Source of the DNA: a virus
Virus record (IMG/VR): IMGVR_UViG_3300044679_000051
Span: 1 to 40,987 of that record
DNA length: 40,987 bases
Reading direction: 5' to 3' (one strand)
In this document: piece after piece, positions 25,868 through 39,875 of the stretch
Position numbering within the stretch: position 1 is the first letter of the stretch
Layout: every line of letters starts with the position of its first letter
Translations under genes and position numbers: made by a program
The notes under the pieces: generated by a model
Database searches by the model: none
What the model saw: only the letters and a program-made list of their open reading frames with translations
What the model was told of the DNA's origin: nothing

Positions 25868-26541
25868 CGAAAATTTACCTGGCCACTCCCTCTTATGACG
25901 GGAAAGTCACTATTCCTTATGCCCTCAGTCTTGGGCATACAGCTTGTCTAATGAATTCACTTGGAATCGCAGTCGAAGTACAAGTAAATTACGGATCAGC
26001 TCTTGTCGTGACTGAAAGAAATCGCATTATGATGAAATTTCTTGAATCTGATGCCACGCATTTGCTTTGTATCGATGCAGACATCGGATGGCCTGCGCAA
26101 GCTGTTAAAAACTTGTTAGATTGCGATTTAGATATTTGTGCAGGATTATATCCTTGCAGACAAAAAAAAGGATATATTTGTAAGCCGTCCTTAAATCCTG
26201 ATGGAAGCATGATAAAAAAAGACAATCTTTTCAAAATGGATTACATTCCTGCTGGATTTATGCTGATAAAAAGAAATGTTATCGAAAAACTAATCGAAAA
26301 TTACTCTCATCTATATTACGAAACTTTAGACGATAATCAAAAAAAACAAGGTTGCTATGCGATCTTCAATACAGAACTCTTCGAAGGCGATTTTTGGGGA
26401 GAAGATTATGTCTTTTCAAGACGCGTCAGAGAATGCGGTTATGAAATATGGATCGATCCATTTATCGAATTCGACCATAATGGAGTCAAAGGAGCCTTCA
26501 TTCAAGAGCTTCTGATGCCTCACAATGGTTCTTCCTCATAA
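25864..26541 (+). CDS. GT-A fold glycosyltransferase, 225 aa
   Basis: ATPSYDGKVTIPYALSL opens like family-2-type transferases found in phages. DAD (residues 71-73, in LLCIDADIGWPA) is the metal/nucleotide-sugar DXD motif. AGLYPCRQKKGY and EDYVFSRRVRECGYEIW complete the fold. Acting in the cytoplasm, it could glycosylate virion fibres or host surface sugars; position as last gene of the fibre operon favours one of these. Confidence 0.8.
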   Translation: MTKIYLATPSYDGKVTIPYALSLGHTACLMNSLGIAVEVQVNYGSALVVTERNRIMMKFLESDATHLLCIDADIGWPAQAVKNLLDCDLDICAGLYPCRQKKGYICKPSLNPDGSMIKKDNLFKMDYIPAGFMLIKRNVIEKLIENYSHLYYETLDDNQKKQGCYAIFNTELFEGDFWGEDYVFSRRVRECGYEIWIDPFIEFDHNGVKGAFIQELLMPHNGSSS

Positions 26542-26728
26542 TATTCCCAGCTTCTAGCAATCCCATTACCAAGCCATTCCTGTAAATTCGCATGTCAGGA
26601 GATTCGTAAAAATCAAAGTCCATTTCTTCACGGACAAAATAAATCTTTTCAAACAAATCTTGTATGCACTGTTCGCAGCTATTAGCAAAAATAGGCATCA
26701 ACGATAATAGGGCTATGTACTTTATCAT
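26498..26728 (-). CDS. Exported small protein, 76 aa
   Basis: Signal peptide MIKYIALLSLMPIFANS, then CEQC and helices; a third cysteine near the end (NHCEAS). Secretion to the periplasm is likely. Its ATG overlaps the stop of the 24-residue frame before it, and its end overlaps the glycosyltransferase by 44 bases, tail to tail. Possible lysis or exclusion role. Confidence 0.7.
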   Translation of the reverse strand: MIKYIALLSLMPIFANSCEQCIQDLFEKIYFVREEMDFDFYESPDMRIYRNGLVMGLLEAGNIMRKNHCEASEALE

Positions 26729-26799
26729 TTTACATCCTGATTTTTATTTTTATCCCAATTAATAACTGCAATCGTGAAAAAGATTATGAAAAATTCCAT
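26725..26799 (-). CDS. Membrane micropeptide, 24 aa
   Basis: MEFFIIFFTIAVINWDKNKN: one membrane helix and a short charged tail. AAGGGA precedes the ATG, and the end overlaps the next start by ATGA. Too short for homology claims, but the signals are good. Confidence 0.6.
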   Translation of the reverse strand: MEFFIIFFTIAVINWDKNKNQDVK

Positions 26800-26802
26800 G
26801 AA

Positions 26803-27009
26803 TTATCCCTTTCTGTTTCTATCTTCAATCACACATAATCTTGCATGAAAATCAGACATCTCTTTCTGAATGGCATTTACTGTTTGATGTATAGCATCTA
26901 TTTTTGAATCCGTATGCAAATATAAAGGAATAGTACTTCCTAAAATTGTGAATAATACAATCGAAAGTTCAATAATCGGCTGCCATTGGACTACTTGTTT
27001 GTTTTCCAT
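26803..27009 (-). CDS. Membrane-anchored coiled-coil protein, 68 aa
   Basis: MENKQVVQWQ, membrane helix at 12-30 (IELSIVLFTILGSTIPLYL), then a coiled coil (DSKIDAIHQTVNAIQKEMSD) and a basic end. Similar architecture, not sequence, to the protein at 19537-19782. Coupled to the upstream gene through TAATG. Inner-membrane spanin-like or holin-like topology. Confidence 0.7.
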   Translation of the reverse strand: MENKQVVQWQPIIELSIVLFTILGSTIPLYLHTDSKIDAIHQTVNAIQKEMSDFHARLCVIEDRNRKG

Positions 27010-27182
27010 TATTTTATCTCCTTTTTTAGAAAATCTTTTGGAATAACATCAGTGATAATCAAAACTGTGCGCATGGCCTCTAACTTCATTTCTAAATTTT
27101 TCATCCTTAAATCTAATGAACATGCAGCCACAGCTAAAAGTGCTAAAATTAGACTATAGGGTCCTATCCAATGATCTTTCAT
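27009..27182 (-). CDS. Small membrane or lipoprotein, 57 aa
   Basis: MKDHWIGPYSLILALLAVAA, then CSLDLRMKNLEMKLEAM: the hydrophobic stretch ends in VAAC, a possible lipobox, followed by a short coiled coil. It is bounded by an ATGA overlap upstream and a TAATG overlap downstream, with AAGGAAATTAA as ribosome site. Could be an outer-membrane spanin subunit if lipidated. Confidence 0.7.
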   Translation of the reverse strand: MKDHWIGPYSLILALLAVAACSLDLRMKNLEMKLEAMRTVLIITDVIPKDFLKKEIK

Positions 27183-27442
27183 TTAATTTCCTTTTTGATC
27201 ACCACTAGATTTTCAATCGCATTATCTAATCCATCCCCATTAAGATGATACACAAATTCATCACTATCAAGCTGCCTACCCAAATGCTCTTCCATGATTG
27301 CCCGATGCAATCGCATCTTTCTTCCATTTACAGTCTTGTAAGGATAGACAATCTTCTTGTTTACATCGTTAACCTTCCTCGGCAAATGTTCATTTTTAGA
27401 ATTTGATGCTCGTGTGCGAGTTCCTGATACATTTTTTTGCAT
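27179..27442 (-). CDS. HNH endonuclease-type protein, 87 aa
   Basis: The core RLHRAIMEEHLGRQLDSDEF, then VYHLNGDGLDNAIENLVV, is the HNH_3-type motif found in small phage homing-like nucleases. The usual HH pair is YH here, so the catalytic site may be altered. GGAGAG lies before ATG 27442, and the first 82 bases overlap the upstream gene in another frame. The basic N-terminus may contact DNA. Confidence 0.7.
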   Translation of the reverse strand: MQKNVSGTRTRASNSKNEHLPRKVNDVNKKIVYPYKTVNGRKMRLHRAIMEEHLGRQLDSDEFVYHLNGDGLDNAIENLVVIKKEIK

Positions 27443-27546
27443 TGGGCTATCTCTCCAAATAACGCTTTTCTTGTCTTAGACCATTCATTACGAATGGTTT
27501 CCATCTCATCTTGAGGGGGTACTTCAAACAATTCTAATTGTTTCAT
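27361..27546 (-). CDS. Small hypothetical helical protein, 61 aa
   Basis: MKQLELFEVPPQDEMETIRN, then helices. The opening MKQLELFE-x-P resembles a sliding-clamp-binding style peptide (Q-x-x-L-F), but this is only a pattern match. AAGGA sits before ATG 27546; a longer frame from 27588 would overlap the exonuclease gene. Lies between exonuclease and HNH genes. Confidence 0.6.
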   Translation of the reverse strand: MKQLELFEVPPQDEMETIRNEWSKTRKALFGEIAQCKKMYQELAHEHQILKMNICRGRLTM

Positions 27547-27548
27547 AA

Positions 27549-28115
27549 TTAGTCCTTTGGTGGTGTGCGCGACTGCACACAATGCCAAAACTCTAATTCT
27601 TTTTCAACCATAATCCTAATATAGTTAGGGTCAATGAGATATGGAATCAATATATTATTTTTCCCATCATACGAGAAATAATCTATGGATTCCAAACTTG
27701 TTATGTATGCTTGGTGATGTAACTGAGCCACATAATACTCGGGAATTTCGCCCTTCTTTGCTAAACGATGAGAACTGGCCCCGCATTTGATTTCTACGGC
27801 CTTCTTCATATCAAAGTCCATCCCATCCATCGAAGCGCTAAGGAAGGGGTGTTCTGATGATTCTAGAACGATTGGAAATACGGGAATTCCTGTCAATGCG
27901 ATGTAATTGAATCTAGCTTCAGATTCAAGGCGTGTGCCTTCGCGCATCTTTTCCGTACATTCTTGTTCCCACCCAAGAACTTTCTCTTCCCAGAGCATTT
28001 GTTTAGTTTTCCAAGGGTTGCATCCCATTATGATAGAAGCGTCAGACGCTCCTATATGCTGACGCCTGAATTCTGTCCATTCTTTTGTTCCTTGTTCGAT
28101 TGAAATAACTTTCAT
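27549..28115 (-). CDS. YqaJ-type phage recombination exonuclease, 188 aa
   Basis: GTKEWTEFRRQHIGASDASI is the family signature. Catalytic residues are visible as D97 (SMDGMD), E108 and K110 (VEIKC), and Q131/Q135 (AQLHHQ), the PD-(D/E)XK nuclease core that degrades one strand of duplex DNA to leave single-stranded ends. Pairs with the ERF annealing protein upstream. Length is near the family minimum. Confidence 0.9.
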   Translation of the reverse strand: MKVISIEQGTKEWTEFRRQHIGASDASIIMGCNPWKTKQMLWEEKVLGWEQECTEKMREGTRLESEARFNYIALTGIPVFPIVLESSEHPFLSASMDGMDFDMKKAVEIKCGASSHRLAKKGEIPEYYVAQLHHQAYITSLESIDYFSYDGKNNILIPYLIDPNYIRIMVEKELEFWHCVQSRTPPKD

Positions 28116-28135
28116 TGATGTCTCTCAGGTAAATT

Positions 28136-28357
28136 TTAAACATTATCATTGTCTTTGTATTCTTTGCTTAACTCCAAAAACTGTTTAGAAAGATCAAGAA
28201 AAAACCTTCTTCGGTTTTTCTTTGCAACATACCCATGAATCACGCAGTTAATGCAATGAAAAAGAGCCGTCAATACTCCACGTGAATCATATCCATGAAT
28301 GGATTTTATTATTTTATCGACTATTTCATTAGTAATTTTTTCTTGTTCATCATCCAT
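28136..28357 (-). CDS. Small hypothetical helical protein, 73 aa
   Basis: MDDEQEKITNEIVDKIIKSI, helical, with a central hydrophobic helix (VLTALFHCINCVIHGYVA) and a basic segment KKNRRR. It overlaps the ERF gene end by eight bases and lies between the two recombination genes. Function unknown; a helper of recombination is possible by position only. Confidence 0.65.
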   Translation of the reverse strand: MDDEQEKITNEIVDKIIKSIHGYDSRGVLTALFHCINCVIHGYVAKKNRRRFFLDLSKQFLELSKEYKDNDNV

Positions 28358-28991
28358 TCGTTTGTCCTTCTATTGTCTTCTGATAAGCTTCAGCATTCTT
28401 ATTCAATCCCTCGATGCATTTCTTATAATAAGACTGAGGCATTGTACTGAATGAACTGATATTATCTTTGGCAAGATAATCCATCAATGTTGTTACGTAA
28501 GCCGGATCGCATAATTCAGAGAGTTGAGAAAGAGTTCTTGACTGATTTTCAGTGATTAAAGGAGAGAGTTTAGGTTCTTCTTTAGGCCTCTTTTTCTCCT
28601 CTCTAGGCATAGCCGCTTGGCCATCATCATCATCCTGACTGATCCCGCACATCGCAGAAAGGCTATAGCGTCTTGCATAACTCAAGCCTGACCCAATCCC
28701 TTGGGCATCGAATTTTGCGGTCACTACGGGCATTGTAGAACGTATCCACTGGCCGGAAGTATGCAATAAGGTTGTGATCAATACCATTTTTTCATTTAAG
28801 GTATCTATAGTTTGCACAACGCAAAGCCCATTTTTGCTTAAGGGTTGACGACAAGCCGCCCATACAGCGTTAAGGTCTGCATACTTTGATTTAAAGTGGG
28901 GATTGGTAGAATCTTTAATTGCAGGTTCCATTTCACCCTGGCATTTAGCGAGTGCGCTCGCAAGTTTGTCGATCTGTTCAGATTGATTCAT
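28350..28991 (-). CDS. erf: ERF-family single-strand annealing protein, 213 aa
   Basis: NPHFKSKYADLNAVWAACRQ, PLSKNGLCVVQ, and GSGLSYARRYSLSAMCGISQ, then an acidic DDDDG, are the ERF (PF04404) hallmarks. It anneals complementary single strands made by the exonuclease during phage recombination or genome circularisation. The C-terminal part (about 145-213) is a small helical domain after a lysine-rich linker. GGAG start. Confidence 0.92.
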   Translation of the reverse strand: MNQSEQIDKLASALAKCQGEMEPAIKDSTNPHFKSKYADLNAVWAACRQPLSKNGLCVVQTIDTLNEKMVLITTLLHTSGQWIRSTMPVVTAKFDAQGIGSGLSYARRYSLSAMCGISQDDDDGQAAMPREEKKRPKEEPKLSPLITENQSRTLSQLSELCDPAYVTTLMDYLAKDNISSFSTMPQSYYKKCIEGLNKNAEAYQKTIEGQTNG

Positions 28992-28994
28992 GAT

Positions 28995-29183
28995 TTACTC
29001 CATATAAGCTTCAAGTTTAATAATCTCTTGCCGTTCTCTAAATCGGCACGTGAATTCCACAATATCGCCATACAATGCCGCTAGCTCGATAGGATCTAGC
29101 TTTGCTATGGTGTCTTCTCTGACTTGTTCCATGTAAGAATCTAACATAACTTTCTCGTGGTAAATTTCACAATCAGGATTCAT
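28995..29183 (-). CDS. Small hypothetical protein, 62 aa
   Basis: MNPDCEIYHEKVMLDSYMEQ, acidic and helical; middle IELAALYGDIVEFTCRF. It overlaps the gene before it by ATGA and precedes ERF by three bases. No family recognised. Confidence 0.7.
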   Translation of the reverse strand: MNPDCEIYHEKVMLDSYMEQVREDTIAKLDPIELAALYGDIVEFTCRFRERQEIIKLEAYME

Positions 29184-29365
29184 AAAGAATCCCCAACAAA
29201 ATTCTTTATCGCTCTCAAATCCTCAGCCTGTTTGCTGATCTCCCAAGAGACCTGCTCCATCATTGAGCAAATGCGCCAACCGAATTGAACTTCTTCGTTG
29301 GCCATATCCGATAGACGATTGCATAAAGCATCGGCTGTTTGAATTAATAGTTCTAAGTCTGTCAT
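29180..29365 (-). CDS. Small hypothetical protein, 61 aa, first gene of the recombination operon
   Basis: MTDLELLIQTADALCNRLSD, helical throughout. AAGGAGA seven bases before the ATG. It is the first gene after the promoter and leader at 29414-29491, a place where lambdoid phages carry antitermination or control proteins; nothing in the sequence identifies it as such. Confidence 0.7.
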   Translation of the reverse strand: MTDLELLIQTADALCNRLSDMANEEVQFGWRICSMMEQVSWEISKQAEDLRAIKNFVGDSL

Positions 29366-29413
29366 ATAAAAATCTCCTTTATGTTTAAATATCTTGGCTT
29401 GCGCTGCGATCTG

Positions 29414-29462
29414 CTGAGTTTGGCGGCTCAGTCACCAGAGAGCACTTGCTTTGATAAACACA
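29414..29462 (-). promoter_or_regulatory. Conserved transcribed leader with hairpin, copy A
   Basis: Minus strand, seven bases after the -10: ATCAAAGCAAG, then TG, CTCTCTGGTGACT, hairpin CTGAG / CTCAG (29427-29431, 29414-29418) with an eight-base loop, then CAG. Copy B at 35428-35474 conserves all but the hairpin pairs, which change together. Candidate antitermination RNA site (nut/put-like) or operator. Confidence 0.65.
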
Positions 29463-29491
29463 AATATATCAGATGCACTATTTAATTGCAA
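29463..29491 (-). promoter_or_regulatory. Leftward early promoter of the recombination operon
   Basis: Minus strand: TTGCAA (29486-29491), 17 bp, TATATT (29463-29468). The -35 is its own reverse complement and also serves the rightward promoter at 29486-29514. Confidence 0.7.
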
Positions 29492-29514
29492 TAAAAAGAA
29501 ACAGATGCTACATT
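29486..29514 (+). promoter_or_regulatory. Rightward early promoter of the Cro-like gene
   Basis: TTGCAA (29486-29491), 17 bp, TACATT (29509-29514), 27 bp before the ATG at 29541. Divergent early promoters with a shared -35 would be mutually exclusive. Confidence 0.55.
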
Positions 29515-29540
29515 ATTTTTATCAACAACAAGGAGGAATC

Positions 29541-29729
29541 ATGGAGTTGAGAGAATGGCTGTTTATCAATCGATTAACAGTCACAGATTTTGCAAAGAGA
29601 ATACAGACATCTAGAAACTATATGGAGATGATCAAAAATAAGAAAAAGATTCCTAGTTTACATTTATCGAAGGCGATAGAGAGTGAGACTGAGGGACAAG
29701 TAACTGTGAAAGATTTGAGGGGAAAATGA
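29541..29729 (+). CDS. Cro/CI-type helix-turn-helix regulator, 62 aa
   Basis: MELREWLFINRLTVTDFAKR, then IQTSRNYMEMIKNKKKIPSL: helix, turn, recognition helix as in small Cro/XRE proteins, ending VTVKDLRGK. AAGGAGGAATC gives a near-ideal start. Its place opposite the recombination operon matches the lambdoid switch. It is probably the repressor of one or both early promoters and of the second element at 35475-35503. No long repressor partner is present. Confidence 0.8.
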   Translation: MELREWLFINRLTVTDFAKRIQTSRNYMEMIKNKKKIPSLHLSKAIESETEGQVTVKDLRGK

Positions 29730-30007
29730 CAGAGGATATAGAGTCCGCAGAAGAGGTTAAATTTGTAGAGAATAATATCAGGAAATTTCTCAAGGAAAAG
29801 GATCTTTCTGCAATAGACGTTCTGACACTTACAATGGCAGCTTTTAAAGGTATCATGCATGTCATGAATCCAAATGACTTTATGGAAAAATTTAAAGAAA
29901 ATGGTTGGGATAAAGAGCAGGTTTTTTTAATACTGGAAGCACTAATTTTTTTAGGAAATATGGTTCACATATGCACTACAAGGGAGACCAAAGAAAATGC
30001 AAATTGA
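29726..30007 (+). CDS. Hypothetical protein, 93 aa, paralogue of the next gene
   Basis: Start overlaps the HTH stop by ATGA. IRKFLKEKDLSAIDVLTLTM aligns with IRKILKEEDIPCVQALYLSL in the gene at 29997, and both end KENAN. Helical, acidic then basic. A tandem duplication followed by divergence; function unknown. Confidence 0.75.
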   Translation: MTEDIESAEEVKFVENNIRKFLKEKDLSAIDVLTLTMAAFKGIMHVMNPNDFMEKFKENGWDKEQVFLILEALIFLGNMVHICTTRETKENAN

Positions 30008-30286
30008 AAAAGAATTGAATACAATTAGAAAAATCCTAAAAGAAGAAGATATACCTTGTGTTCAGGCTTTATATTTATCTTTGCTCTGCATTGAAACGAT
30101 GTGTGCTATATCCGATAAATTTCAAGAAGATTTTCACCAAGAAGGTAGACGTATTTTTCCTGAAACTTATTCAGAAAGATTGAAAACGTTAGCTATTTTA
30201 TGTAATTGGGTGTCGATAGTTCTTCATGAAGAAGACGTGCTAAAAAAATTTTTTAAAGAAGGAAAAAAAGAAAATGCAAATTGAAA
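29990..30286. repeat. Pair of 20-bp boundary repeats
   Basis: AAAGAAAATGCAAATTGAAA occurs at 29990-30009 and 30267-30286. Each copy is both the end of one gene (KENAN stop) and the start of the next (MQIE). Confidence 0.95.
29997..30284 (+). CDS. Hypothetical protein, 95 aa, paralogue of the previous gene
   Basis: MQIEKELNTIRKILKEEDIP, helical, with cysteines in ALYLSLLCIETMCA. Starts inside the end of the upstream paralogue and ends in a copy of the same 20-bp boundary. No known family. Confidence 0.75.
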   Translation: MQIEKELNTIRKILKEEDIPCVQALYLSLLCIETMCAISDKFQEDFHQEGRRIFPETYSERLKTLAILCNWVSIVLHEEDVLKKFFKEGKKENAN

Positions 30287-30633
30287 TTGTAGGATTTTAC
30301 GTTATTGAAAGAGATGACGCAAAAGAGAAGCTCACGGGTACTTTACACGTATATTTAGTCGAAGAAGGGATTGATATTCGAGGCTGTTATGTGGTTAGAA
30401 AAAAATCCGGTATTCTCATTTTTTTACCGTCTAAAATCGGTGTGGATGAAGATACCGGAAAGAAAGTCCAGTATCCAGTATTTCAATACATGGATACTGA
30501 AAAGAATAAGGAACTCTTGATTCAAATCAGATACAAAGGGATTTCGTATATTCTGGATGAGGTTCTGAAACTCAAAGATAAGCGCAAGAAGAATAAAAAA
30601 GAAACAATATTCCGCGCAAAGGCCAAGAAATGA
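30274..30633 (+). CDS. Hypothetical beta-rich protein with basic tail, 119 aa
   Basis: MQIEIVGFYVIERDDAKEKL, TGTLHVYLVEEGIDIRGCYV, then SGILIFLPSKIG and a lysine-rich tail (KDKRKKNKKET). The order of strands (G-x-L-x-V ... I-x-x-P-x-K) is like SpoVG-type small nucleic-acid-binding proteins and like the gene at 32132. The match is weak; DNA or RNA binding is plausible from the tail. Confidence 0.6.
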   Translation: MQIEIVGFYVIERDDAKEKLTGTLHVYLVEEGIDIRGCYVVRKKSGILIFLPSKIGVDEDTGKKVQYPVFQYMDTEKNKELLIQIRYKGISYILDEVLKLKDKRKKNKKETIFRAKAKK

Positions 30634-30692
30634 ATGGCTTATCCGTAATGTTAAGATTTTATTGGAATTAATTTGAAAGAAGTCTAGTCTAG

Positions 30693-30724
30693 AAAAAATA
30701 AAAGACCGCCTTGAAGGACGGTCT
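30693..30724 (-). terminator. Terminator against leftward transcription
   Basis: Stem AGACCG / CGGTCT (30703-30708, 30719-30724). On the minus strand it is followed by TTTTATTTTTTC, a good intrinsic terminator; on the plus strand no T-tract follows. No leftward gene lies nearby. Confidence 0.6.
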
Positions 30725-30778
30725 CTTAAGAAGTCAAAAACTTTGTTTGAATTACTTAAAACATAGCGACTTCTTAAG
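30725..30778. repeat. 11-bp inverted repeat before the replication gene
   Basis: CTTAAGAAGTC (30725-30735) and GACTTCTTAAG (30768-30778) are perfect inverted copies around 32 AT-rich bases. They end 30 bases before the ATG at 30808. Candidate operator pair, origin element or large RNA stem-loop. Confidence 0.8.
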
Positions 30779-30807
30779 TTTAAATCAACATAAACTATAG
30801 GATCGTT

Positions 30808-31584
30808 ATGACCTCTTCTTCTTCAGTCTCTTACAATCAATCTCATTCAATACATAGTTTCTCTCTTGAGGTTGCAACGGCTTTAAAAAGCGTCGATCAG
30901 GCCATTTTTTTACACCATATTTTTTATTGGCTTGAATATAACGAAAGGGCTGGTAAAAATTTTCAAGAAGGGCGCTATTGGTCCTATCAAACTCTTGAAG
31001 AACTTCAATACCATTTTCCATATTGGACTGTTCGCCAATTAAGGTTCATTATCGAAAAATTGATGAAAGCGGGGATACTTTTGAAGGGAAATTTCAATGA
31101 GAACAAATATGACCATACTACTTGGTATTCAATAGATTATGAAAAATATCGATCGATTTGCCAAATTTGTCAAAACGGTTCGACAGGAATGTCAGACCGA
31201 ACGGTTAGGAATGTCACTTCTAGTATTATAAATATAGATAAACATAATGAAAAACAACTACTACAAGAGGAGGTAGTCGTCGTTGTTGAGGATGAAATTG
31301 ACGAACAAGTGCAAAAGATGAGTTCATACCTAAAAAGATTTTCTCAAGTTCACGGCCCCGAATGGGATATTCCTATAGCTTTTCTTAAGAAGCTTATCTC
31401 TGTAAATGGTTTTAAATACGTAACGAATCAATTAAATTATATGGCTGAGCAGCAAGCAGAATCTTGGAAAGATGAAAAAGCGCCTTATAAAAAGAACAAA
31501 ACATCTAAAATTGAGAAGCCTAAGAAGTATTTAGAGAGAGCGTGTAAAGAAAATTGGGCTGATTCGGAACATAAAAAGGAGTGA
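30808..31584 (+). CDS. Replication initiator-like winged-helix protein, 258 aa
   Basis: Residues 15-115 form a winged helix seen in phage replication proteins: DQAIFLHHIFYWLEYNERAG, RYWSYQTLEELQYHFPYWTV, RQLRFIIEKLMKAGILLKGN, YDHTTWYSIDYEKY. A linker and an acidic stretch follow, then a C-terminal helical part (200-258) that could bind a host helicase loader. AGGA lies before the ATG. It is the likely lambda O-type initiator; no phage polymerase or helicase is present, so host enzymes would be used. Confidence 0.8.
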   Translation: MTSSSSVSYNQSHSIHSFSLEVATALKSVDQAIFLHHIFYWLEYNERAGKNFQEGRYWSYQTLEELQYHFPYWTVRQLRFIIEKLMKAGILLKGNFNENKYDHTTWYSIDYEKYRSICQICQNGSTGMSDRTVRNVTSSIINIDKHNEKQLLQEEVVVVVEDEIDEQVQKMSSYLKRFSQVHGPEWDIPIAFLKKLISVNGFKYVTNQLNYMAEQQAESWKDEKAPYKKNKTSKIEKPKKYLERACKENWADSEHKKE

Positions 31585-31586
31585 AT

Positions 31587-31832
31587 ATGACAATTTTAAG
31601 AGATAAATTTTCACCGGCCTCTGTTGTAGATGATGATGATTTATCATTAGCAGCGAAAGGATTAGCTTGGATGATTTTTTGCAGTCAGAAGTTAGATAGA
31701 GAAAAAGCTTTTTTAGATCATCGTTCTTTGATCACTGAAATAGAAAAATGTAGTTCCGATTCAGATTTTAATATTGAACATGCCTTAGAAGATTTGATGG
31801 ACGGGGGCATTATTTCTTTTGATGGAAAATAA
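31587..31832 (+). CDS. Small winged-helix protein, 81 aa
   Basis: SLAAKGLAWMIFCSQKL and IEHALEDLMDGGIISFDGK fit the N-terminal wing of DnaD-like replication proteins (LS-x-x-AKGL ... AL-x-x-L-x-x-x-G-[YI]I). ATG 31587 has GGAG five bases upstream, supplied by the end of the initiator gene. Probably works with the initiator. Confidence 0.65.
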   Translation: MTILRDKFSPASVVDDDDLSLAAKGLAWMIFCSQKLDREKAFLDHRSLITEIEKCSSDSDFNIEHALEDLMDGGIISFDGK

Positions 31833-31863
31833 AAAAGGCTGTAAGAACATTCGTCTTACAGCC
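31826..31863 (-). terminator. Terminator against leftward transcription
   Basis: Perfect 10-bp stem GGCTGTAAGA / TCTTACAGCC (31837-31846, 31854-31863) with loop ACATTCG. On the minus strand TTTTTTATTTT follows. On the plus strand only ACCCTTAAA follows. Confidence 0.7.
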
Positions 31864-31880
31864 ACCCTTAAACCAAATAT

Positions 31881-31913
31881 TTAGGAGGTGATCTTATGAA
31901 AAATCACTTATGA
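31881..31913 (+). promoter_or_regulatory. Full-length ribosome site with five-codon open frame
   Basis: TTAGGAGGTGATC (31881-31893) complements nearly the entire 3' end of bacterial 16S rRNA. It is followed by ATGAAAAATCACTTATGA, coding MKNHL. GTGAT and ATCAC can pair across the start. Possibly a translation enhancer, an attenuator or a ribosome trap upstream of the gene at 31951. Confidence 0.6.
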
Positions 31914-31950
31914 AAATTAATAACTTAAACTTTAAATTAGGACAAGAGAA

Positions 31951-32139
31951 ATGAAAGATGACTTAGAAAAGTTGATCGAGCAGCTGGAAGAATTATCAAA
32001 TCTTGAGAACAAAGATCATATTGAAATTGCAGATATTTTTGGGAAATTTGAATTCAATACTTATTCTGCAATGCATTTGCTTGCGACAGAAATTCGGGAC
32101 CTTAAAGACAGAAATTACTTAGAGGATTTAGATGATTGA
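31951..32139 (+). CDS. Small acidic protein, 62 aa
   Basis: MKDDLEKLIEQLEELSNLEN, coiled-coil-like, acidic throughout. Ends eight bases into the next gene. Function unknown; DNA mimicry is conceivable from charge but nothing further supports it. Confidence 0.65.
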   Translation: MKDDLEKLIEQLEELSNLENKDHIEIADIFGKFEFNTYSAMHLLATEIRDLKDRNYLEDLDD

Positions 32140-32401
32140 AATAAAAAACTTCGAACCAATGGAAAAAGGAACCTTTAAAGGACATCTTTCGATATGCGTT
32201 CCGAAATGGGGTGGATTCGTCATACATTCGCTTGCATTGATGCAAAAGGATGGTAAGCGATGGATATCATTCCCTAATAAGAAAGTCGCCGTGGAAGGGC
32301 AACCAGATCGTTGGGTGCCAATTATGCAGTTTGAGAAGGCTGAAACTCAGAAACAATTTACGGAAGCTGTCTTGAAAGCTTTTGATGAGCAATGGGGGTA
32401 A
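32132..32401 (+). CDS. Conserved phage protein, possibly SpoVG-like, 89 aa
   Basis: IEIKNFEPMEKGTFKGHLSI, CVPKWGGFVIHSLALMQKDG, then RWISFPNKKV and a C-terminal helix (TQKQFTEAVLKAFDEQW). This order is frequent in small phage proteins near replication genes and resembles the SpoVG fold (strand-rich core, FP-x-K, final helix). GAGGATTTAG start. Likely nucleic-acid binding. Confidence 0.7.
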   Translation: MIEIKNFEPMEKGTFKGHLSICVPKWGGFVIHSLALMQKDGKRWISFPNKKVAVEGQPDRWVPIMQFEKAETQKQFTEAVLKAFDEQWG

Positions 32402-32402
32402 T

Positions 32403-32633
32403 ATGCTGACACATAAAGGAAGAAAATGCGTATTTAAAGTTGAAAATGAATATCTAAATCCACCCGTTTATATTTATGAGGGAAATAATGCAATTGTGAA
32501 CGTCATTCTTCCTGGCAAATTTCTTATTATGGATGGATTTTGTAGCTATCCTTTTAAAATATCGATTGATGATTGGTATTATATGTGGGAAGGAAGCAAA
32601 AAAAAACATAAATTTTGTAATATTTTCAAATAA
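32403..32633 (+). CDS. Small hypothetical protein, 76 aa
   Basis: MLTHKGRKCVFKVENEYLNP, beta-rich with many aromatics (DDWYYMWEGSKKKH). ATG 32403 directly follows the previous stop behind GGGGGT. No family recognised. Confidence 0.65.
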   Translation: MLTHKGRKCVFKVENEYLNPPVYIYEGNNAIVNVILPGKFLIMDGFCSYPFKISIDDWYYMWEGSKKKHKFCNIFK

Positions 32634-32655
32634 ATAAGGGGGAAAATTCCCCCTT
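32625..32655 (-). terminator. Terminator against leftward transcription
   Basis: Stem AAGGGGG / CCCCCTT (32636-32642, 32649-32655), loop AAAATT, and a second small stem CCTTT/AAAGG beside it. On the minus strand TTATTTATTTG follows. The plus strand has no T-tract after it. Confidence 0.55.
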
Positions 32656-32724
32656 TCACGAAAGGATATTTCTATATGTAAAAAAAAGTATACATAATTT
32701 CGGCCATTTGATAAAGGTAATTCT

Positions 32725-33111
32725 ATGAACAAAATAGAAGCCTTTTACTTGCCTCTCAGGATCGAATCGGAAGGAAACAAGTCAGACCATTGGTGGTGGA
32801 AAAAAGAACGCAAGAAGGCCCAAAAGAATGCGATTAAGCCGGTATTGGCAACTTCAACCATCAGGCCTCCTTGTCATGTAGTAATAACTAGGGTTGCTCC
32901 TCGAATGCTAGATGAAGAAGATAATTTACCTTCGGCCCTTAAATGGTCAAAGGATTGTATAGCAGATATCCTAATCCCTGGACTAAAAGCTGGAAGGTCT
33001 GACGGATCAAAAGAAATAAGTTGGGAGTTTAAACAATCAAAAGGCAACGTACGCGAATACGGCCTTAAAATCGAGTTAATCAAGGAACTTAAACATGTTG
33101 AGCCGAAGTGA
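32725..33111 (+). CDS. RusA-like Holliday-junction resolvase, 128 aa
   Basis: The core PPCHVVITRVAPRMLDEEDN, LPSALKWSKDCIADILIPGL, then EISWEFKQ and YGLKIEL matches the RusA-type order, with acidic residues of the LDEEDN loop as probable metal ligands. The family cuts branched DNA during replication or packaging. AAAGGTAATTCT start. Sequence identity looks low, hence moderate confidence. Confidence 0.65.
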   Translation: MNKIEAFYLPLRIESEGNKSDHWWWKKERKKAQKNAIKPVLATSTIRPPCHVVITRVAPRMLDEEDNLPSALKWSKDCIADILIPGLKAGRSDGSKEISWEFKQSKGNVREYGLKIELIKELKHVEPK

Positions 33112-33292
33112 TACAAAAATATTAAAAAGAATGGAAGATACCTGGACGGCGTTTAAATTGTCAAGAAATTCTAGACCAAATTCCAATAATCTTCCTCAAC
33201 CCTGGCTTTCAATGCTGGAAAGAGAATCGTACATAGATGAACTATTCAGAATATTGAGACGCTCCAAAAAAACGATCGAAGTTTATGAATAA
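33095..33292 (+). CDS. Small basic hypothetical protein, 65 aa
   Basis: MLSRSDTKILKRMEDTWTAF, then LPQPWLSMLERESYIDELFR and ILRRSKKTIEVYE. Overlaps the resolvase gene by 17 bases and the next gene by eight. Charged helical protein; in this position lambdoid phages often carry late regulators, but no family is visible. Confidence 0.65.
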   Translation: MLSRSDTKILKRMEDTWTAFKLSRNSRPNSNNLPQPWLSMLERESYIDELFRILRRSKKTIEVYE

Positions 33293-33515
33293 TTTAGAGC
33301 TATCCGCAGATCAAGTTATTGACCTGATTTTCGAGAAAAAAATAAGTTTAAATGATACAAATATTTCTGTAAAACATTCATTCTTAAGTGTATTGTCTAA
33401 ATTAGAAGAAAGAATTTATAGAAGTAATAATTTTGATACGAGTGGCCTCACAATGATTGTGGAGGATGGCATAAAAAAGTCATCTAGAAACGGAAAGAAA
33501 TTATCTAGAATATAG
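33285..33515 (+). CDS. Small hypothetical protein, 76 aa
   Basis: MNNLELSADQVIDLIFEKKI, helical, with a basic end (SSRNGKKLSRI). No known family. Part of the closely packed run after the resolvase. Confidence 0.65.
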   Translation: MNNLELSADQVIDLIFEKKISLNDTNISVKHSFLSVLSKLEERIYRSNNFDTSGLTMIVEDGIKKSSRNGKKLSRI

Positions 33516-33523
33516 GGGGATTT

Positions 33524-33619
33524 ATGGAGTTTATATATTTAATATTAGTTTTAGCAGGCTTTTTTTTTGGGATGGGTGCGTCATGGCTGTGGAATACAAG
33601 AGACAATGGATGTCGATGA
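33524..33619 (+). CDS. Membrane micropeptide, 31 aa
   Basis: MEFIYLILVLAGFFFGMGAS: one membrane helix, then WLWNTRDNGCR. AGGGGGA three bases before the ATG supports translation. A run of nine T inside codes for the phenylalanines. It could be a lysis-related or host-interaction peptide. Confidence 0.6.
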   Translation: MEFIYLILVLAGFFFGMGASWLWNTRDNGCR

Positions 33620-33672
33620 TGAATATTAGTGGGCCGAATAGCTCATTTTCGTTAATTTAACCAGGAAATAAA

Positions 33673-33897
33673 ATGTTAGCAGATTTCATAAGAAGATTAA
33701 TTTACAAAAAAAAAGACACGAAGATATTAGTATCCACAACAAAAAAACATGAAGAGGAAGAAATGGATAAGAAAATAAAAGAATTGCAGAAGAGCACAAA
33801 GAAAGTAGTCAAGGAAGAGGCTTCTCTTCTCAAAGCTGACAAGAAAAATGATAAGGTTATAGACAAAGCAAAAAAGAAGATGAAAGGGAAATGCTAA
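33673..33897 (+). CDS. Small lysine-rich protein, 74 aa
   Basis: An N-terminal part (MLADFIRRLIYKKKDTKILV) may be amphipathic; the rest is lysine/glutamate coiled coil (MDKKIKELQKSTKKVVKEEA). AGGAAATAAA supports ATG 33673; a second good start exists at 33763 behind GAGGAAG. Possibly a DNA-binding or structural protein. Confidence 0.6.
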   Translation: MLADFIRRLIYKKKDTKILVSTTKKHEEEEMDKKIKELQKSTKKVVKEEASLLKADKKNDKVIDKAKKKMKGKC

Positions 33898-34349
33898 TGA
33901 AGATTCCATTGCAAAGTGAAATTTATTTAATAAATGAAAGAATTAAAGAAATTAGAGATCATCTAAAAGAGCTACTAAATGATTTAAATGAAAAAATAGT
34001 CGATTGTTACAATGAATTTAGATTAAGGCAAGATGATTGTTCCGCTAGGATAATTAATCTAGAAAAAAAAACGAAGAATCTTTCTCAAAGCAATGAAAAA
34101 GACACCGAGCCATGTATTACATCGCCTAAATGGAAAAAGTGGCAACGACAGCAAATAAATGGCCTTCCTGAGGATGATAAAACGTACCTTGTATCATGGA
34201 AAGATGCAGAGCAGAATTATGTAGGCCCATATAATGCATATTATCTTGAAGAAGAAAACAAATTCTTTCTTTGCGAATGTTTGTGCCCTGTGCCTGTTCA
34301 TGTAGATATCTTCATAGAAATACCCTTATTCCCTGGAAAAGATGAATAA
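33897..34349 (+). CDS. Hypothetical protein with coiled coil and DUF551-like end, 150 aa
   Basis: Residues 1-75 form a coiled coil (INERIKEIRDHLKELLND). Residues 90-148 (LPEDDKTYLVSWKDAEQNYV ... VDIFIEIPLFP) have the layout of a DUF551-type domain. ATG 33897 has AAAGGG eight bases upstream; 33891 is too close. A fusion-like architecture. Confidence 0.65.
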   Translation: MKIPLQSEIYLINERIKEIRDHLKELLNDLNEKIVDCYNEFRLRQDDCSARIINLEKKTKNLSQSNEKDTEPCITSPKWKKWQRQQINGLPEDDKTYLVSWKDAEQNYVGPYNAYYLEEENKFFLCECLCPVPVHVDIFIEIPLFPGKDE

Positions 34350-34539
34350 CACAGTAACCGAAATAACCGTGACTATCAAGGATGAGGAAAAAACTCTTAG
34401 GAGCAAGTACCTCACTTATGTAAAATATGCATTAGACTACGACGACCCGGTAATTAAAGACTGTGTGGCTCGGTCACTGAAAGATTTCAGCGGCGAGCCC
34501 ACAGACATTCGATTAAGAATTAATCTCACCATCCTCTGA
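34342..34539 (+). CDS. Small hypothetical protein, 65 aa
   Basis: MNNTVTEITVTIKDEEKTLR, beta-hairpin start, then helices. GGAAAAG before the ATG; overlaps the previous gene by eight bases and the convergent gene at 34513 by 27 bases. Last gene of the rightward early operon. Confidence 0.65.
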   Translation: MNNTVTEITVTIKDEEKTLRSKYLTYVKYALDYDDPVIKDCVARSLKDFSGEPTDIRLRINLTIL

Positions 34540-34923
34540 TTTAAGGATACCATATATAACTATCAAGGCTGCTGCTAAATCATAATGAGTAATAGGAGAT
34601 GTCATTGCATGTTTAGGCAAATTGTCATGGCTCTTGATCATCTCATCAAGCATGCTCATCATGGCGTGCCTACTTGGCTTTTCACTTATCGGACTTTCAT
34701 TATCTTTTGGTGGGTCTCCTTCTTTCTCGTCCTTTATAGTCACGACAATTTGGTTTCCCTCATCGTCTATTCTAAGAAGGTTATTATAATCCTTTGCAGA
34801 CACATAGTACTTAATATTACCCCCGCTTATGGCAATCTCGCCACATGAACAAGTAACATAATCTTCTAGATGATAGCTCTCTATTATGCTATTGCATAGC
34901 TTGCATTTTGCTCTATTTCTCAT
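34513..34923 (-). CDS. Zinc-ribbon protein, DUF7695-like, 136 aa
   Basis: The N-terminus NRAKCKLCNSIIESYHLEDY, then CSCGEIAISGG, is the zinc-ribbon of small phage proteins (C-x2-C ... C-x-C). The rest is linker and a helical C-terminus. AGGG before the ATG. It is the last gene of the leftward operon that starts at the element-B promoter. Confidence 0.75.
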   Translation of the reverse strand: MRNRAKCKLCNSIIESYHLEDYVTCSCGEIAISGGNIKYYVSAKDYNNLLRIDDEGNQIVVTIKDEKEGDPPKDNESPISEKPSRHAMMSMLDEMIKSHDNLPKHAMTSPITHYDLAAALIVIYGILKSEDGEINS

Positions 34924-34988
34924 AAAACCCTAATGTAAAGTAATTATTTGACTCACTCGTAAAAATGCGATTTTTGGGACGTAAAGTA

Positions 34989-35126
34989 TCAATCTTTTCC
35001 TAGTTCTGTATATATTTCATAATAGCAACGTTCACATAATTCTTTTCCGGTCATAGGGTGAGATTCATACCCTTCTAAGTCTGAATCTCTGTATATGTCG
35101 CACTCTTCGCATTTAAATATACTCAT
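34989..35126 (-). CDS. Zinc-finger microprotein, 45 aa
   Basis: MSIFKCEECDIYRDSDLEGY, then LCERCYYEIY: two CxxC pairs 25 residues apart, a single treble-clef or LIM-like zinc site. AAGGAGGGATAAC is one of the strongest ribosome sites in the window. Starts two bases after the upstream stop. Confidence 0.8.
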   Translation of the reverse strand: MSIFKCEECDIYRDSDLEGYESHPMTGKELCERCYYEIYTELGKD

Positions 35127-35127
35127 G

Positions 35128-35337
35128 TTATCCCTCCTTGCTTAATGCTAATAAAACAATCACTTCAAGACTTAATCCAGCTTTTTCCATAGCTTCTAAC
35201 TTAAATACAGATTCATCATCCGAATACTTGCTATCTATAAGATCAAATATTTCTTTTTTGCTCAATGGTCTTAAATATCTCTCTCTGGTTACATAATTTA
35301 ACATTAGCTCATGTGTGTAGTCTTGTGTTGTTATCAT
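35128..35337 (-). CDS. Small hypothetical helical protein, 69 aa
   Basis: MITTQDYTHELMLNYVTRER, helical, with YLRPLSKKEIFDLIDSKYSD. AGGGGAAT precedes the ATG. First gene behind the second leftward promoter/leader element. Function unknown. Confidence 0.7.
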   Translation of the reverse strand: MITTQDYTHELMLNYVTRERYLRPLSKKEIFDLIDSKYSDDESVFKLEAMEKAGLSLEVIVLLALSKEG

Positions 35338-35370
35338 ATATTCCCCTGATTAGTTTTTAATTTCTTAAAG

Positions 35371-35404
35371 TTACCTAAACCGCCCTACTGACGATTACCT
35401 AAAC
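35371..35404. repeat. Two 10-bp direct repeats in the leader region
   Basis: TTACCTAAAC at 35371-35380 and 35395-35404, 24 bp apart, in the untranslated leader of the leftward transcript. Possible protein-binding pair. Confidence 0.8.
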
Positions 35405-35427
35405 TTTTACCTCAGCCGCTCAACCTG

Positions 35428-35474
35428 CTAGTCTTGTTGAACTAGTCACCAGGGAGCTTGCTTCGATGCTAACT
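35428..35474 (-). promoter_or_regulatory. Conserved transcribed leader with hairpin, copy B
   Basis: Minus strand, seven bases after the -10: ATCGAAGCAAG, CTCCCTGGTGACT, hairpin CTAGT / ACTAG (35441-35445, 35428-35432) with an eight-base loop, then CAG. It matches copy A (29414-29462) except that both arms of the stem have changed in a pairing-preserving way. Confidence 0.65.
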
Positions 35475-35503
35475 AATATATCATGTGATCACATTTAATA
35501 CAA
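35475..35503 (-). promoter_or_regulatory. Second leftward promoter with operator-like palindrome
   Basis: Minus strand: TTGTAT (35498-35503), 17 bp, TATATT (35475-35480). The spacer contains the perfect 12-bp palindrome ATGTGATCACAT (35483-35494), a likely protein-binding site. Confidence 0.65.
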
Positions 35504-37695: not shown

Positions 37696-37724
37696 TTGTC
37701 ACAATATAAACTTTGTTGTATGTT
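37696..37724 (+). promoter_or_regulatory. Portal gene promoter
   Basis: TTGTCA (37696-37701), 17 bp, TATGTT (37719-37724), with a leader of only about 18 bases to ATG 37749. No clear ribosome site is seen in that leader. Confidence 0.6.
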
Positions 37725-37748
37725 CTTATATTTAATGGACTTACGCCT

Positions 37749-39875
37749 ATGACCTTCTATTTTCCGCCGTGGGATAATGCATTAGAGCCTTCTCAAGGTA
37801 GTGTAAGGCAATGGTTAGACAATTTATATTCTAAATTCCAGCCCATAGAGCAAGCTAGATGGAATCAATCCAATATCGACACTCTATTCTATGCAGGCGC
37901 TCAAGACTTCACTAATCGATACACAAACTTAGGCTCTCAAGCCTCAAAATCAAACTGGCACTTTAACATTTGCCAGCAACCCGTCAACATGCTAACTGGT
38001 TATGAGAGACAACATAGAAAGAATTTCAATTTTATTGCAACAGAAGGGGCCGACCCGCAAACAGCTGATGAATATACAAGGCTAATCACTAACGTAGCAA
38101 ATAAAGGTTATATTCATGAGCAGAAGTCTAAGGCTAAGGAGCTATCTGCAATATCTGGAATGGTATTACTTCATCCCTATTTAGACTATTCAGGAGATGA
38201 TCAAGCACAAGGTGAGCTTAAAGTTAAGATTTGGGAATACAATTCTTTCTTAGTTGACCCATATTTTAGATGTCCGGCAATGACTGACGCTCAGTTCGTA
38301 TGGTGTCAAGAATACGTATCTAAGAAAGAAGCCGAAGATCGTTTCCCGGGAAAAATAAATAATATCACTCCTATGGCTGGAACTCCTCAAAGATATGGAA
38401 ACTTTTACTTTCTTCCTGAAAATTATAATATGGCTCGCAATGATCTTTTAGTCCTGTCATATGTATGGTACAAGTGGAAGCGTAAAAAGAAACGATTGTA
38501 CAGTAAAACACGAAATCAATTCTTTGACTTTGCCGGAGGGGAAGAAAACCTTGATCAGATTCTATATAATATCCCTGATATGGAAGTTGTTAATGTTGAA
38601 GTTCCTTGCTGGAAGCTTGCAACTGTGCTTAATGATCAGCTCATGTATCAAGGGGAAAACCCATTAGGATTCGATTCATGTCCATTTATTCCATACTTCT
38701 GGAACTATGAGCCGCATAACAACTACTATGATTTAAGAGTCCGTTCTCTTATTCGCACAATGAGAGACCCGCAGTTCCTTTTCAATACCAAGATTATAAA
38801 CAATAACGATATTGCAGCTGCAACAATTAACGCTGGATGGAAGCGCAAGATAGGAGCTGTAGCAAACGAAGATAATCTCAAGAAAACCGGTCAAGGTTGG
38901 GATATCATTATCAATCAGGGTTATGAAATGACTGATATTGAGAAGATCATTCCTAGCGCTGTTCCTGAGTCTGATTTAGCATTAGCCCAACAAATGTCAG
39001 ATCTTATCTTCCAAACATCAGGAATTAATCTTGAGAACTGGTCAGGCCAGAACGATAAGCAAGTTAGCTCTCTTACGATGTTGATGAAGTCTGCTGCAAA
39101 CCTTATGGTATTCCAGAAATATTTTGATCAATGGGATTTCTCAGACAGTCTATTGGGCGATGTCATGCTTAAGATCTGTCTTAACAATTGGAATGCGGAG
39201 AAAGTAAAGCTTTACATAGGGCAAGACCCAAGTCCTTATTTTTACTCACGCATATTCTCTAAGTATCAAGTCTTGGTTGAGGAATCAGACCTCACACCTA
39301 CTCAACAGAACCTGCAAGCTCAAAATATGTTAGACATAAATACTACATTCGGTAGAGAGGTATTCCCTCCTTCTATGATCATTCCAAAATTGAATATCAC
39401 AGGAAAAGGCGAGATTATCCCATTCTTACAACAACAAGAACAACAAGCTGCGGCCGTCGAATCAGAAGCTACAAATTTACAGCATACTGTTGAAGAAATG
39501 AAATTAAAAGAGATGATGGCTAAGATTCACAATCAGCTTTCACAAGCAAGAGAACGTGATTCTCGTTCTGAGTCTAACGTTGGTCTATTCGAGGAACGCA
39601 TGAGCATGATATCCAAAAATCATGCCTTAGCTGCAAAAGAGAAGATGGCTGCATTAGCTCAGCTTTTAGAGACTATTCAGAAGTTCGGCGAGGTTGAAAC
39701 TTTCTTACAATCTAATAATCTCGAATCGATCAAATATGATGAAGAAGAACAAGAAAAAGAATCTAGAAAGAAAGTAGAAGAAGATGAGGCTTCAAAACGC
39801 TTCATCAATCAGATTATGGGTAGTGCTCCACAAAAAAAACAGAGTCCTTCCCAAAATCCTATGAGTATGGTATAA
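37749..39875 (+). CDS. Portal protein, P22-like, 708 aa
   Basis: WHFNICQQPVNMLTGYERQH, RKNFNFIATEGAD, FLVDPYFRCPAMTDAQFVWC and WNYEPHNNYYDLRVRSLIRT are characteristic of P22-type portals. The C-terminal 170 residues are a glutamine/glutamate/lysine-rich coiled coil, the barrel-like extension of this group. Length is close to P22 gp1. ATG 37749 is preferred over an upstream TTG; neither has a good ribosome site. Twelve copies would form the packaging ring. Confidence 0.9.
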   Translation: MTFYFPPWDNALEPSQGSVRQWLDNLYSKFQPIEQARWNQSNIDTLFYAGAQDFTNRYTNLGSQASKSNWHFNICQQPVNMLTGYERQHRKNFNFIATEGADPQTADEYTRLITNVANKGYIHEQKSKAKELSAISGMVLLHPYLDYSGDDQAQGELKVKIWEYNSFLVDPYFRCPAMTDAQFVWCQEYVSKKEAEDRFPGKINNITPMAGTPQRYGNFYFLPENYNMARNDLLVLSYVWYKWKRKKKRLYSKTRNQFFDFAGGEENLDQILYNIPDMEVVNVEVPCWKLATVLNDQLMYQGENPLGFDSCPFIPYFWNYEPHNNYYDLRVRSLIRTMRDPQFLFNTKIINNNDIAAATINAGWKRKIGAVANEDNLKKTGQGWDIIINQGYEMTDIEKIIPSAVPESDLALAQQMSDLIFQTSGINLENWSGQNDKQVSSLTMLMKSAANLMVFQKYFDQWDFSDSLLGDVMLKICLNNWNAEKVKLYIGQDPSPYFYSRIFSKYQVLVEESDLTPTQQNLQAQNMLDINTTFGREVFPPSMIIPKLNITGKGEIIPFLQQQEQQAAAVESEATNLQHTVEEMKLKEMMAKIHNQLSQARERDSRSESNVGLFEERMSMISKNHALAAKEKMAALAQLLETIQKFGEVETFLQSNNLESIKYDEEEQEKESRKKVEEDEASKRFINQIMGSAPQKKQSPSQNPMSMV

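What the first reader, a model, noticed from the sequence alone, without database searches (positions are those of the whole stretch)
29414..35503. Duplicated promoter-plus-leader element with a covarying hairpin
Two regions 6 kb apart (29414-29491 and 35428-35503) share a leftward promoter (17-bp spacer, -10 TATATT in both) and, seven bases later, a conserved leader: ATC-R-AAGCAAG, CTC-Y-CTGGTGACT, a five-bp hairpin with eight-base loop, then CAG. The stem bases differ (CTGAG/CTCAG versus CTAGT/ACTAG) but still pair, so selection is on RNA structure or on an inverted operator. Each heads a separate leftward operon. The arrangement recalls HK022 put RNA or lambda nut sites, which also sit at the start of early transcripts, but the sequence is not one I recognise. 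It could coordinate both operons through a phage protein or by direct RNA action on polymerase.
Basis: partly seen in the sequence, partly recalled or inferred. Interest (0 to 1): 0.8.

Follow-up and report, generated by a model that had tools for sequence, protein, structure and literature searches.

The report
New structured RNA at phage transcript starts
Two early transcripts of this uncultured phage begin with the same folded piece of RNA, which is conserved in dozens of distantly related phages but in no catalogued RNA family, so it is a real, apparently undescribed viral RNA element that probably acts on its own transcript with host factors.

Summary
Two leftward promoters (29491-29463 and 35503-35475) each start an RNA with a shared ~60-nt leader. 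There is also an outer helix, (N)CUC-YCUG/CAGR-uY-G(Y)AG(N), separated from the inner one by a conserved 4-nt NUGA bulge. Covariance models found 37 members in IMG/VR phages whose portal proteins fall to about 22% identity. Ten of 13 pairs show changes on both sides that keep the pair; slid controls show almost none. The RNA starts 6-7 nt after a -10 box in 33 of 37, and its first bases pair with its end in 28 of 37 (shuffled 12). It is present in 13 of 34 portal-chosen relatives, on either or both of two leftward promoters. It has no Rfam match and no similarity to HK022 put. No phage gene tracks with it, arguing against an N/nut pair. Carriers show no excess of terminators in the left operon, so antitermination gains no support. 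Best reading: a 5'-terminal, self-closing leader acting in cis through host machinery, probably shielding the early mRNA 5' end (0.38); a put-like action on RNA polymerase is the main rival (0.30). Host and function are untested.

The parts
29463..29491 (-). Promoter of the Erf/RecE operon: -35 TTGCAA (29491-29486), 17-nt spacer, -10 TATATT (29468-29463)
   Evidence: sequence; consensus scan
29391..29455 (-). Leader RNA copy 1 (W1), from the predicted transcription start to the GAU that can pair with its first bases
   Evidence: covariance models: E=2.4e-16, 8.8e-16
29404..29442 (-). W1 outer helix: 5' arm CUCUCUG 29442-29436, 3' arm CAGAUCGCAG 29413-29404 (unpaired UC and bulged C)
   Evidence: compensatory changes, helix 1
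29432..29435 (-). W1 conserved bulge GUGA (family NUGA), on the 5' side only
   Evidence: column conservation U 0.85, G 0.94, A 0.86 over 37 members
29414..29431 (-). W1 inner hairpin CUGAG-CCGCCAAA-CUCAG
   Evidence: compensatory changes in all 5 pairs of helix 2
35475..35503 (-). Promoter of the second leftward operon: -35 TTGTAT, 17-nt spacer, -10 TATATT (35480-35475)
   Evidence: sequence
35409..35467 (-). Leader RNA copy 2 (W2); predicted to fold from its first base, AUC with GGU and AGC with GCU
   Evidence: covariance model E=3.7e-19; minimum-energy fold -20.3 kcal/mol matches the consensus
35418..35457 (-). W2 outer helix: 5' arm GCUCCCUG 35457-35450, 3' arm CAGGUUGAGC 35427-35418
35446..35449 (-). 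W2 conserved bulge GUGA
35428..35445 (-). W2 inner hairpin CUAGU-UCAACAAG-ACUAG
26498..29365 (-). Operon led by W1: small gene 29180-29365, Erf-like annealing protein 28350-28991, RecE-like exonuclease 27549-28115, HNH protein 27179-27442
   Evidence: PHROGs; conserved layout in relatives
34513..35337 (-). Operon led by W2: small genes 35128-35337 and 34989-35126, DUF7695 protein 34513-34923
   Evidence: Pfam; conserved family
29541..29729 (+). Cro-like HTH gene divergent from W1
   Evidence: weak HTH matches; conserved neighbour of W1-type copies

Best explanation
SHOWN: a structured RNA family that forms the extreme 5' end of early phage transcripts. It is one interrupted hairpin: [AUC..AGC]-[CUC YCUG]-NUGA bulge-[CUNNN-loop-NNNAG]-[CAGR uY G(Y)AG]-[GCU..GAU]. 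It is a movable module on either or both of two leftward promoters. INFERRED: it acts in cis and needs no dedicated phage partner. It folds as soon as it emerges, closes over the transcript's own first nucleotides, and its conserved bulge and loop are read by, or kept away from, a host factor. The most likely main effect is protection of the early mRNA 5' end from 5'-end-dependent decay (pyrophosphate removal, then RNase E-type entry), raising expression of recombination and other early genes. My confidence that it is a conserved RNA leader is about 0.97; the number below is for the mechanism.
For: Structure: 10 of 13 pairs with changes on both sides, 65 such cells against 15.4 shuffled and 0-9 when slid; formerly invariant outer pairs vary with compensation in distant members. 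Position: 33 of 37 start 6-7 nt after a -10 hexamer, i.e. at about +1. 5'-end closure: at least 2 of the first 4 nt pair with the tail in 28 of 37 against 12.1 +/- 2.8 shuffled, maximum 20; mean duplex z -1.62 +/- 0.20; the predicted fold of W2 is closed from base 1. No phage gene tracks with it. Module-like: the leaders of most non-carriers that were read are short and plain. In E. coli, RNase E cleaves RNAs with an accessible 5' monophosphate more than tenfold faster than ones with a base-paired 5' end, and decapping RppH enzymes prefer unpaired 5' ends (PMC3997798).
Against: Simple 5' stabilisers do not need conserved bulge or loop bases, yet NUGA, AUCAAAGCAA and parts of the loop are strongly conserved, which points to specific recognition. 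In 9 of 37 members the first bases are not clearly paired. The AGC/GCU pairing rests mainly on conservation and complementarity, not covariation. The transcription start is inferred from the -10 box, and the host and its decay pathway are unknown.
Confidence: 0.38

Rival explanations
1. Put-like RNA: the nascent leader binds host RNA polymerase and makes it resistant to pauses or terminators, without a phage protein.
For: Same kind of place as HK022 putL (first nucleotides of the leftward early transcript); similar size; no partner gene; sequence-conserved bulge and loop. Single strong terminators lie inside some element-led operons (L141 11846-11875, L183 11759-11786, L186 10875-10907). Three strong terminators facing W2 lie 2.8-4.7 kb downstream of it.
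Against: Carriers have no more intrinsic terminators in the first 3 kb of the left operon than non-carriers (0.22 vs 0.53 per genome, p=0.12), while the scan finds known sites in lambda and HK022. Terminators facing W2 are as common without the element (2.2 vs 2.5 per 5 kb, 34 of 35 genomes). No sequence similarity to put; one hairpin, not two stem-loops. No copy was found on the rightward early operon.
Confidence: 0.3
2. Protein-binding leader: the bulge and loop bind a host RNA-binding or ribosomal protein, or a near-universal phage protein, to control translation or delivery of the early mRNA.
For: Conserved unpaired bases in a covarying frame, a common design of protein sites. The cognate protein could be host-encoded or one of the phage proteins present in all members.
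Against: No carrier-specific phage gene among 142 families. Ribosome-binding sites lie outside the element, mostly about 20-75 nt downstream. Strict +1 placement is not needed for such sites.
Confidence: 0.19
3. Ligand- or state-sensing riboswitch-like leader, for example with its CUCC segment able to pair with the downstream Shine-Dalgarno sequence.
For: The CUCC strand of the outer helix resembles an anti-Shine-Dalgarno sequence (seen in the sequence).
Against: No Rfam match; no consistent terminator or paired RBS just downstream; variable distance to the start codon.
Confidence: 0.07
4. Inverted-repeat DNA operator for the Cro-like protein or another regulator.
For: Sits immediately downstream of promoters divergent from an HTH gene.
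Against: Stem letters differ between copies in one genome and across genomes while pairing is kept; asymmetric one-sided bulge; one DNA-binding protein is unlikely to read several alternative arm sequences.
Confidence: 0.03
5. Chance resemblance or recent duplication without function.
For: Only two copies in the window; short element.
Against: 37 members in phages with portal identity down to about 22%; two same-strand copies also in G003 and G006.
Confidence: 0.01

Closest known systems
HK022 put RNA (putL/putR)
   Same: Structured RNA at the very start of a leftward early phage transcript, of similar length, with no phage partner protein found
   Different: Put is two stem-loops (cryo-EM, PMC9378689); this is one long hairpin with a one-sided NUGA bulge. 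No sequence similarity. putR sits about 270 nt from its start whereas this element is nearly always at +1, and no copy was found on the rightward operon. No excess of terminators in the operon.
Lambda nut sites (boxA/boxB) with N protein
   Same: RNA hairpin early in the left operon, upstream of recombination genes
   Different: No boxA/boxB arrangement; no gene tracks with the element as N would; strict +1 position, whereas nut lies further inside the transcript (own knowledge)
5'-terminal stabilising stem-loops (ompA, papA type)
   Same: Starts at +1 and pairs the transcript's first nucleotides
   Different: Those are individual leaders; this is a covarying family with conserved bulge and loop letters across distant phages (literature listed in PMC3997798)
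Rfam families
   Same: Compact covarying leader RNA
   Different: No significant or plausible match in Rfam 15 in three searches

Membership tests
HK022 put RNA | Sequence similarity to putL/putR | tested here: not met
   Local alignment scores 10-16 against 12.6 +/- 2 shuffled; putL-putR score 35
HK022 put RNA | Two adjacent stem-loops | tested here: not met
   Consensus is one interrupted hairpin
HK022 put RNA | Immediately downstream of an early promoter (putL) | tested here: met
   33 of 37 start 6-7 nt after the -10 box
HK022 put RNA | Acts without a phage protein | tested here: inconclusive
   No carrier-specific gene among 142 families, but activity not measured
HK022 put RNA | Terminators or pauses downstream that are suppressed | tested here: inconclusive
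   No enrichment of intrinsic terminators in carriers' left operon; Rho-dependent sites and activity not testable
HK022 put RNA | Binds the beta' zinc-binding domain of RNA polymerase | not testable with these tools
   needs biochemistry
Lambda nut/N | Cognate N-type antiterminator gene present with the element | tested here: not met
   No gene family tracks with the element; universal early genes in the first 12 carriers are only the RecE-like nuclease and, in 11, the HTH
Lambda nut/N | boxA followed by a boxB hairpin with GNRA-like loop | tested here: not met
   Consensus loop CCAACAAA, no conserved boxA (read from the alignment)
5'-terminal stabilising stem-loop | First nucleotides of the transcript base-paired | tested here: met
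   28 of 37 against 12.1 +/- 2.8 shuffled; 9 of 37 do not clearly meet it
5'-terminal stabilising stem-loop | Longer mRNA half-life | not testable with these tools
   needs decay measurements
Known Rfam family | Score above the gathering threshold | tested here: not met
DNA operator | Conserved arm sequence between copies | tested here: not met
   Arms differ, pairing kept

The most novel reading that the evidence does not exclude
A second, structurally unrelated class of protein-independent phage RNA that rides on or reprograms host RNA polymerase from the first nucleotides of the transcript, evolved independently of put and passed as a promoter-linked module among phages of uncultured bacteria.
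Probability: 0.27. Interest if true: 0.85.

Novelty: new variant of a known kind. Interest (0 to 1): 0.64.

Why it matters
Very few phage RNAs are known to act in cis at the start of early transcripts; HK022 put is the main example. This family has strong covariation support, spans deeply diverged phages, is gained and lost at the same promoter, and has no evident protein partner. It is short enough to test directly in a reporter or in a purified transcription or decay assay. Whether it acts on polymerase or on mRNA decay, it would show a host-directed RNA strategy used by an abundant, uncultured phage group.

Tried and rejected
Direct nucleotide search of 50,697 phage records with each 300-nt region: no match. 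Consensus search of the same records: only chance 21-nt matches in coding sequence. Strict pattern in about 85,000 species genomes: 0; relaxed pattern: 23 hits, none confirmed by the model. Many pattern hits in IMG/VR (L001, L002, L004, L006, L007, L009, L011, L012, L014, L017-L019, L025-L036) are coding or chance. TerL relatives (80 loci) carry no element. Rfam: no match. Four RecE relatives carry none. Window 8681-8736 (+) scores weakly but lies within the structural gene region and lacks the motif: rejected. Gene co-occurrence to find a partner protein: none. Terminator enrichment in carriers: none. Left-operon length: no difference, p=0.49. A put-type -10-like pause sequence: no match better than 4 of 6 in any of 37 elements, but the control putL scored only 3 of 6 by this test, so it is uninformative. 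Host assignment failed: the portal has no match in 50,697 phage records and relatives come from metagenomes.
Full report
CHECKING THE OBSERVATION. The shared pattern AAGCAAG-n-CYCTGGTGACT occurs twice in the window and in none of 100 shuffles. Each copy lies 7 nt after a TATATT -10 box with a 17-nt spacer to its -35 box. A 4-nt NUGA bulge on the 5' side separates the helices.

FINDING RELATIVES. Pattern scans of IMG/VR gave the first real members among many chance hits; with the two window copies that made ten distinct sequences. A covariance model from eight of them (R1) found further copies, including a second same-strand copy in G003 and in G006, 5.8 and 4.7 kb from the first, the same layout as in the window. 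A relaxed pattern plus R1 brought the family to 24. Portal proteins were then used to choose relatives without reference to the RNA: 13 of 34 near-complete records carry it. These include distant members in which formerly invariant outer pairs change with compensation, such as C-G to U-A, U-A to A-U, C-G to A-U, and C-G to G-C. A third model found no further convincing copies in 46 records. The same search gave nothing in 80 terminase relatives or HK022, nothing confirmed in about 85,000 bacterial and archaeal species genomes, and nothing in annotated phages.

COVARIATION. On 37 members, 92.8% of cells pair, 10 of 13 pairs have changes on both sides, and 65 cells carry such changes against 15.4 in shuffles. 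Sliding the partners by 1-3 columns leaves 0-9 such cells. Both helices contribute. The alignment is fitted to the structure and so leans towards it, but the slid controls and the first MAFFT alignment (A2, not fitted to any structure) agree. Portal identity among carriers falls to about 22-25%, so conservation of the RNA letters is not explained by recent ancestry alone.

POSITION AND 5' CLOSURE. In 33 of 37 members a -10 hexamer ends 6 or 7 nt before the element, so the element begins at the predicted transcription start. The first bases (AUC and AGC) are complementary to the tail just after the outer helix (GCU..GAU): at least two of the first four bases pair with the tail in 28 of 37, against 12.1 +/- 2.8 in shuffles with a maximum of 20 (energies). 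The RNA is therefore best seen as one hairpin that closes over the transcript's own 5' end. The predicted fold of W2 shows this from base 1.

CONTEXT. Most copies lead the leftward operon with an Erf-like or other annealing protein and a RecE-like exonuclease, divergent from a small HTH gene (PHROGs). A minority lead a second leftward promoter about 4-6 kb away, near the terminase, upstream of small genes. Three of 25 carriers have both. G004 has only the second kind; its left promoter has a short plain leader, as do most of the non-carriers that were read. The element therefore behaves as a module gained or lost between promoter and ribosome-binding site.

MECHANISM. No partner protein: of 142 gene families in 46 genomes none tracks with the element. 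The strongest association, the RecE-like nuclease (24 of 25 carriers, 12 of 21 non-carriers, p=0.0027), does not survive correction for 142 tests. This speaks against an N/nut pair and for host machinery. No local switch: no consistent terminator or ribosome-binding site lies within reach. Antitermination: carriers do not have more intrinsic terminators in the first 3 kb of the left operon (0.22 against 0.53 per genome), although the scan recovers known lambda and HK022 terminators, including one just after putL. Rho-dependent sites and pausing cannot be tested here. The strict +1 start and the paired first bases fit a leader that shields the 5' end: RNase E cleaves RNAs with an accessible 5' monophosphate more than tenfold faster than ones with a base-paired 5' end, and decapping enzymes prefer unpaired ends (PMC3997798). 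The conserved NUGA bulge and loop bases suggest more than passive shielding, so a put-like action on RNA polymerase remains a close second. Inferred, not shown: the exact start site, action in cis, the host factor, and any effect on decay or elongation.

COMPARISON. HK022 put is the nearest analogue in position and in lacking a partner (PMC9378689), but sequence and fold differ, so it is not a member of that family. It may still work like put. Rfam 15 has no significant match. The literature searches that were possible (open-access papers only) showed no description of it; subscription papers could not be searched.

Noticed in passing
window 30699-30728, 31834-31866, 32633-32656 (-): Three strong intrinsic terminators face leftward inside the rightward early operon. 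The same bias (2.2-2.5 per 5 kb against 0.4 in the operon's own direction) is seen in 34 of 35 related genomes with or without the RNA element: a group-wide feature that may guard the operon or promoter region from antisense transcription.
   Followed up: partly
window 34513-34923 (-): DUF7695 protein (Pfam E=4e-15) present in 41 of 46 related phages in a small leftward operon near the terminase; function unknown.
   Followed up: no
window 37713-39875 and records G000-G060: Large group of about 40-kb phages known only from metagenomes (at least 487 portal relatives in IMG/VR, no match to the portal in 50,697 phage records); host unknown.
   Followed up: partly
window 32132-32401 (+): SpoVG-like protein (Pfam E=3.7e-6, just below cut-off) in the rightward early operon, also in five related records.
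   Followed up: no
L139 4800-5260: In G004 the left early promoter has a short plain leader without the element, while the second leftward promoter carries it.
   Followed up: yes
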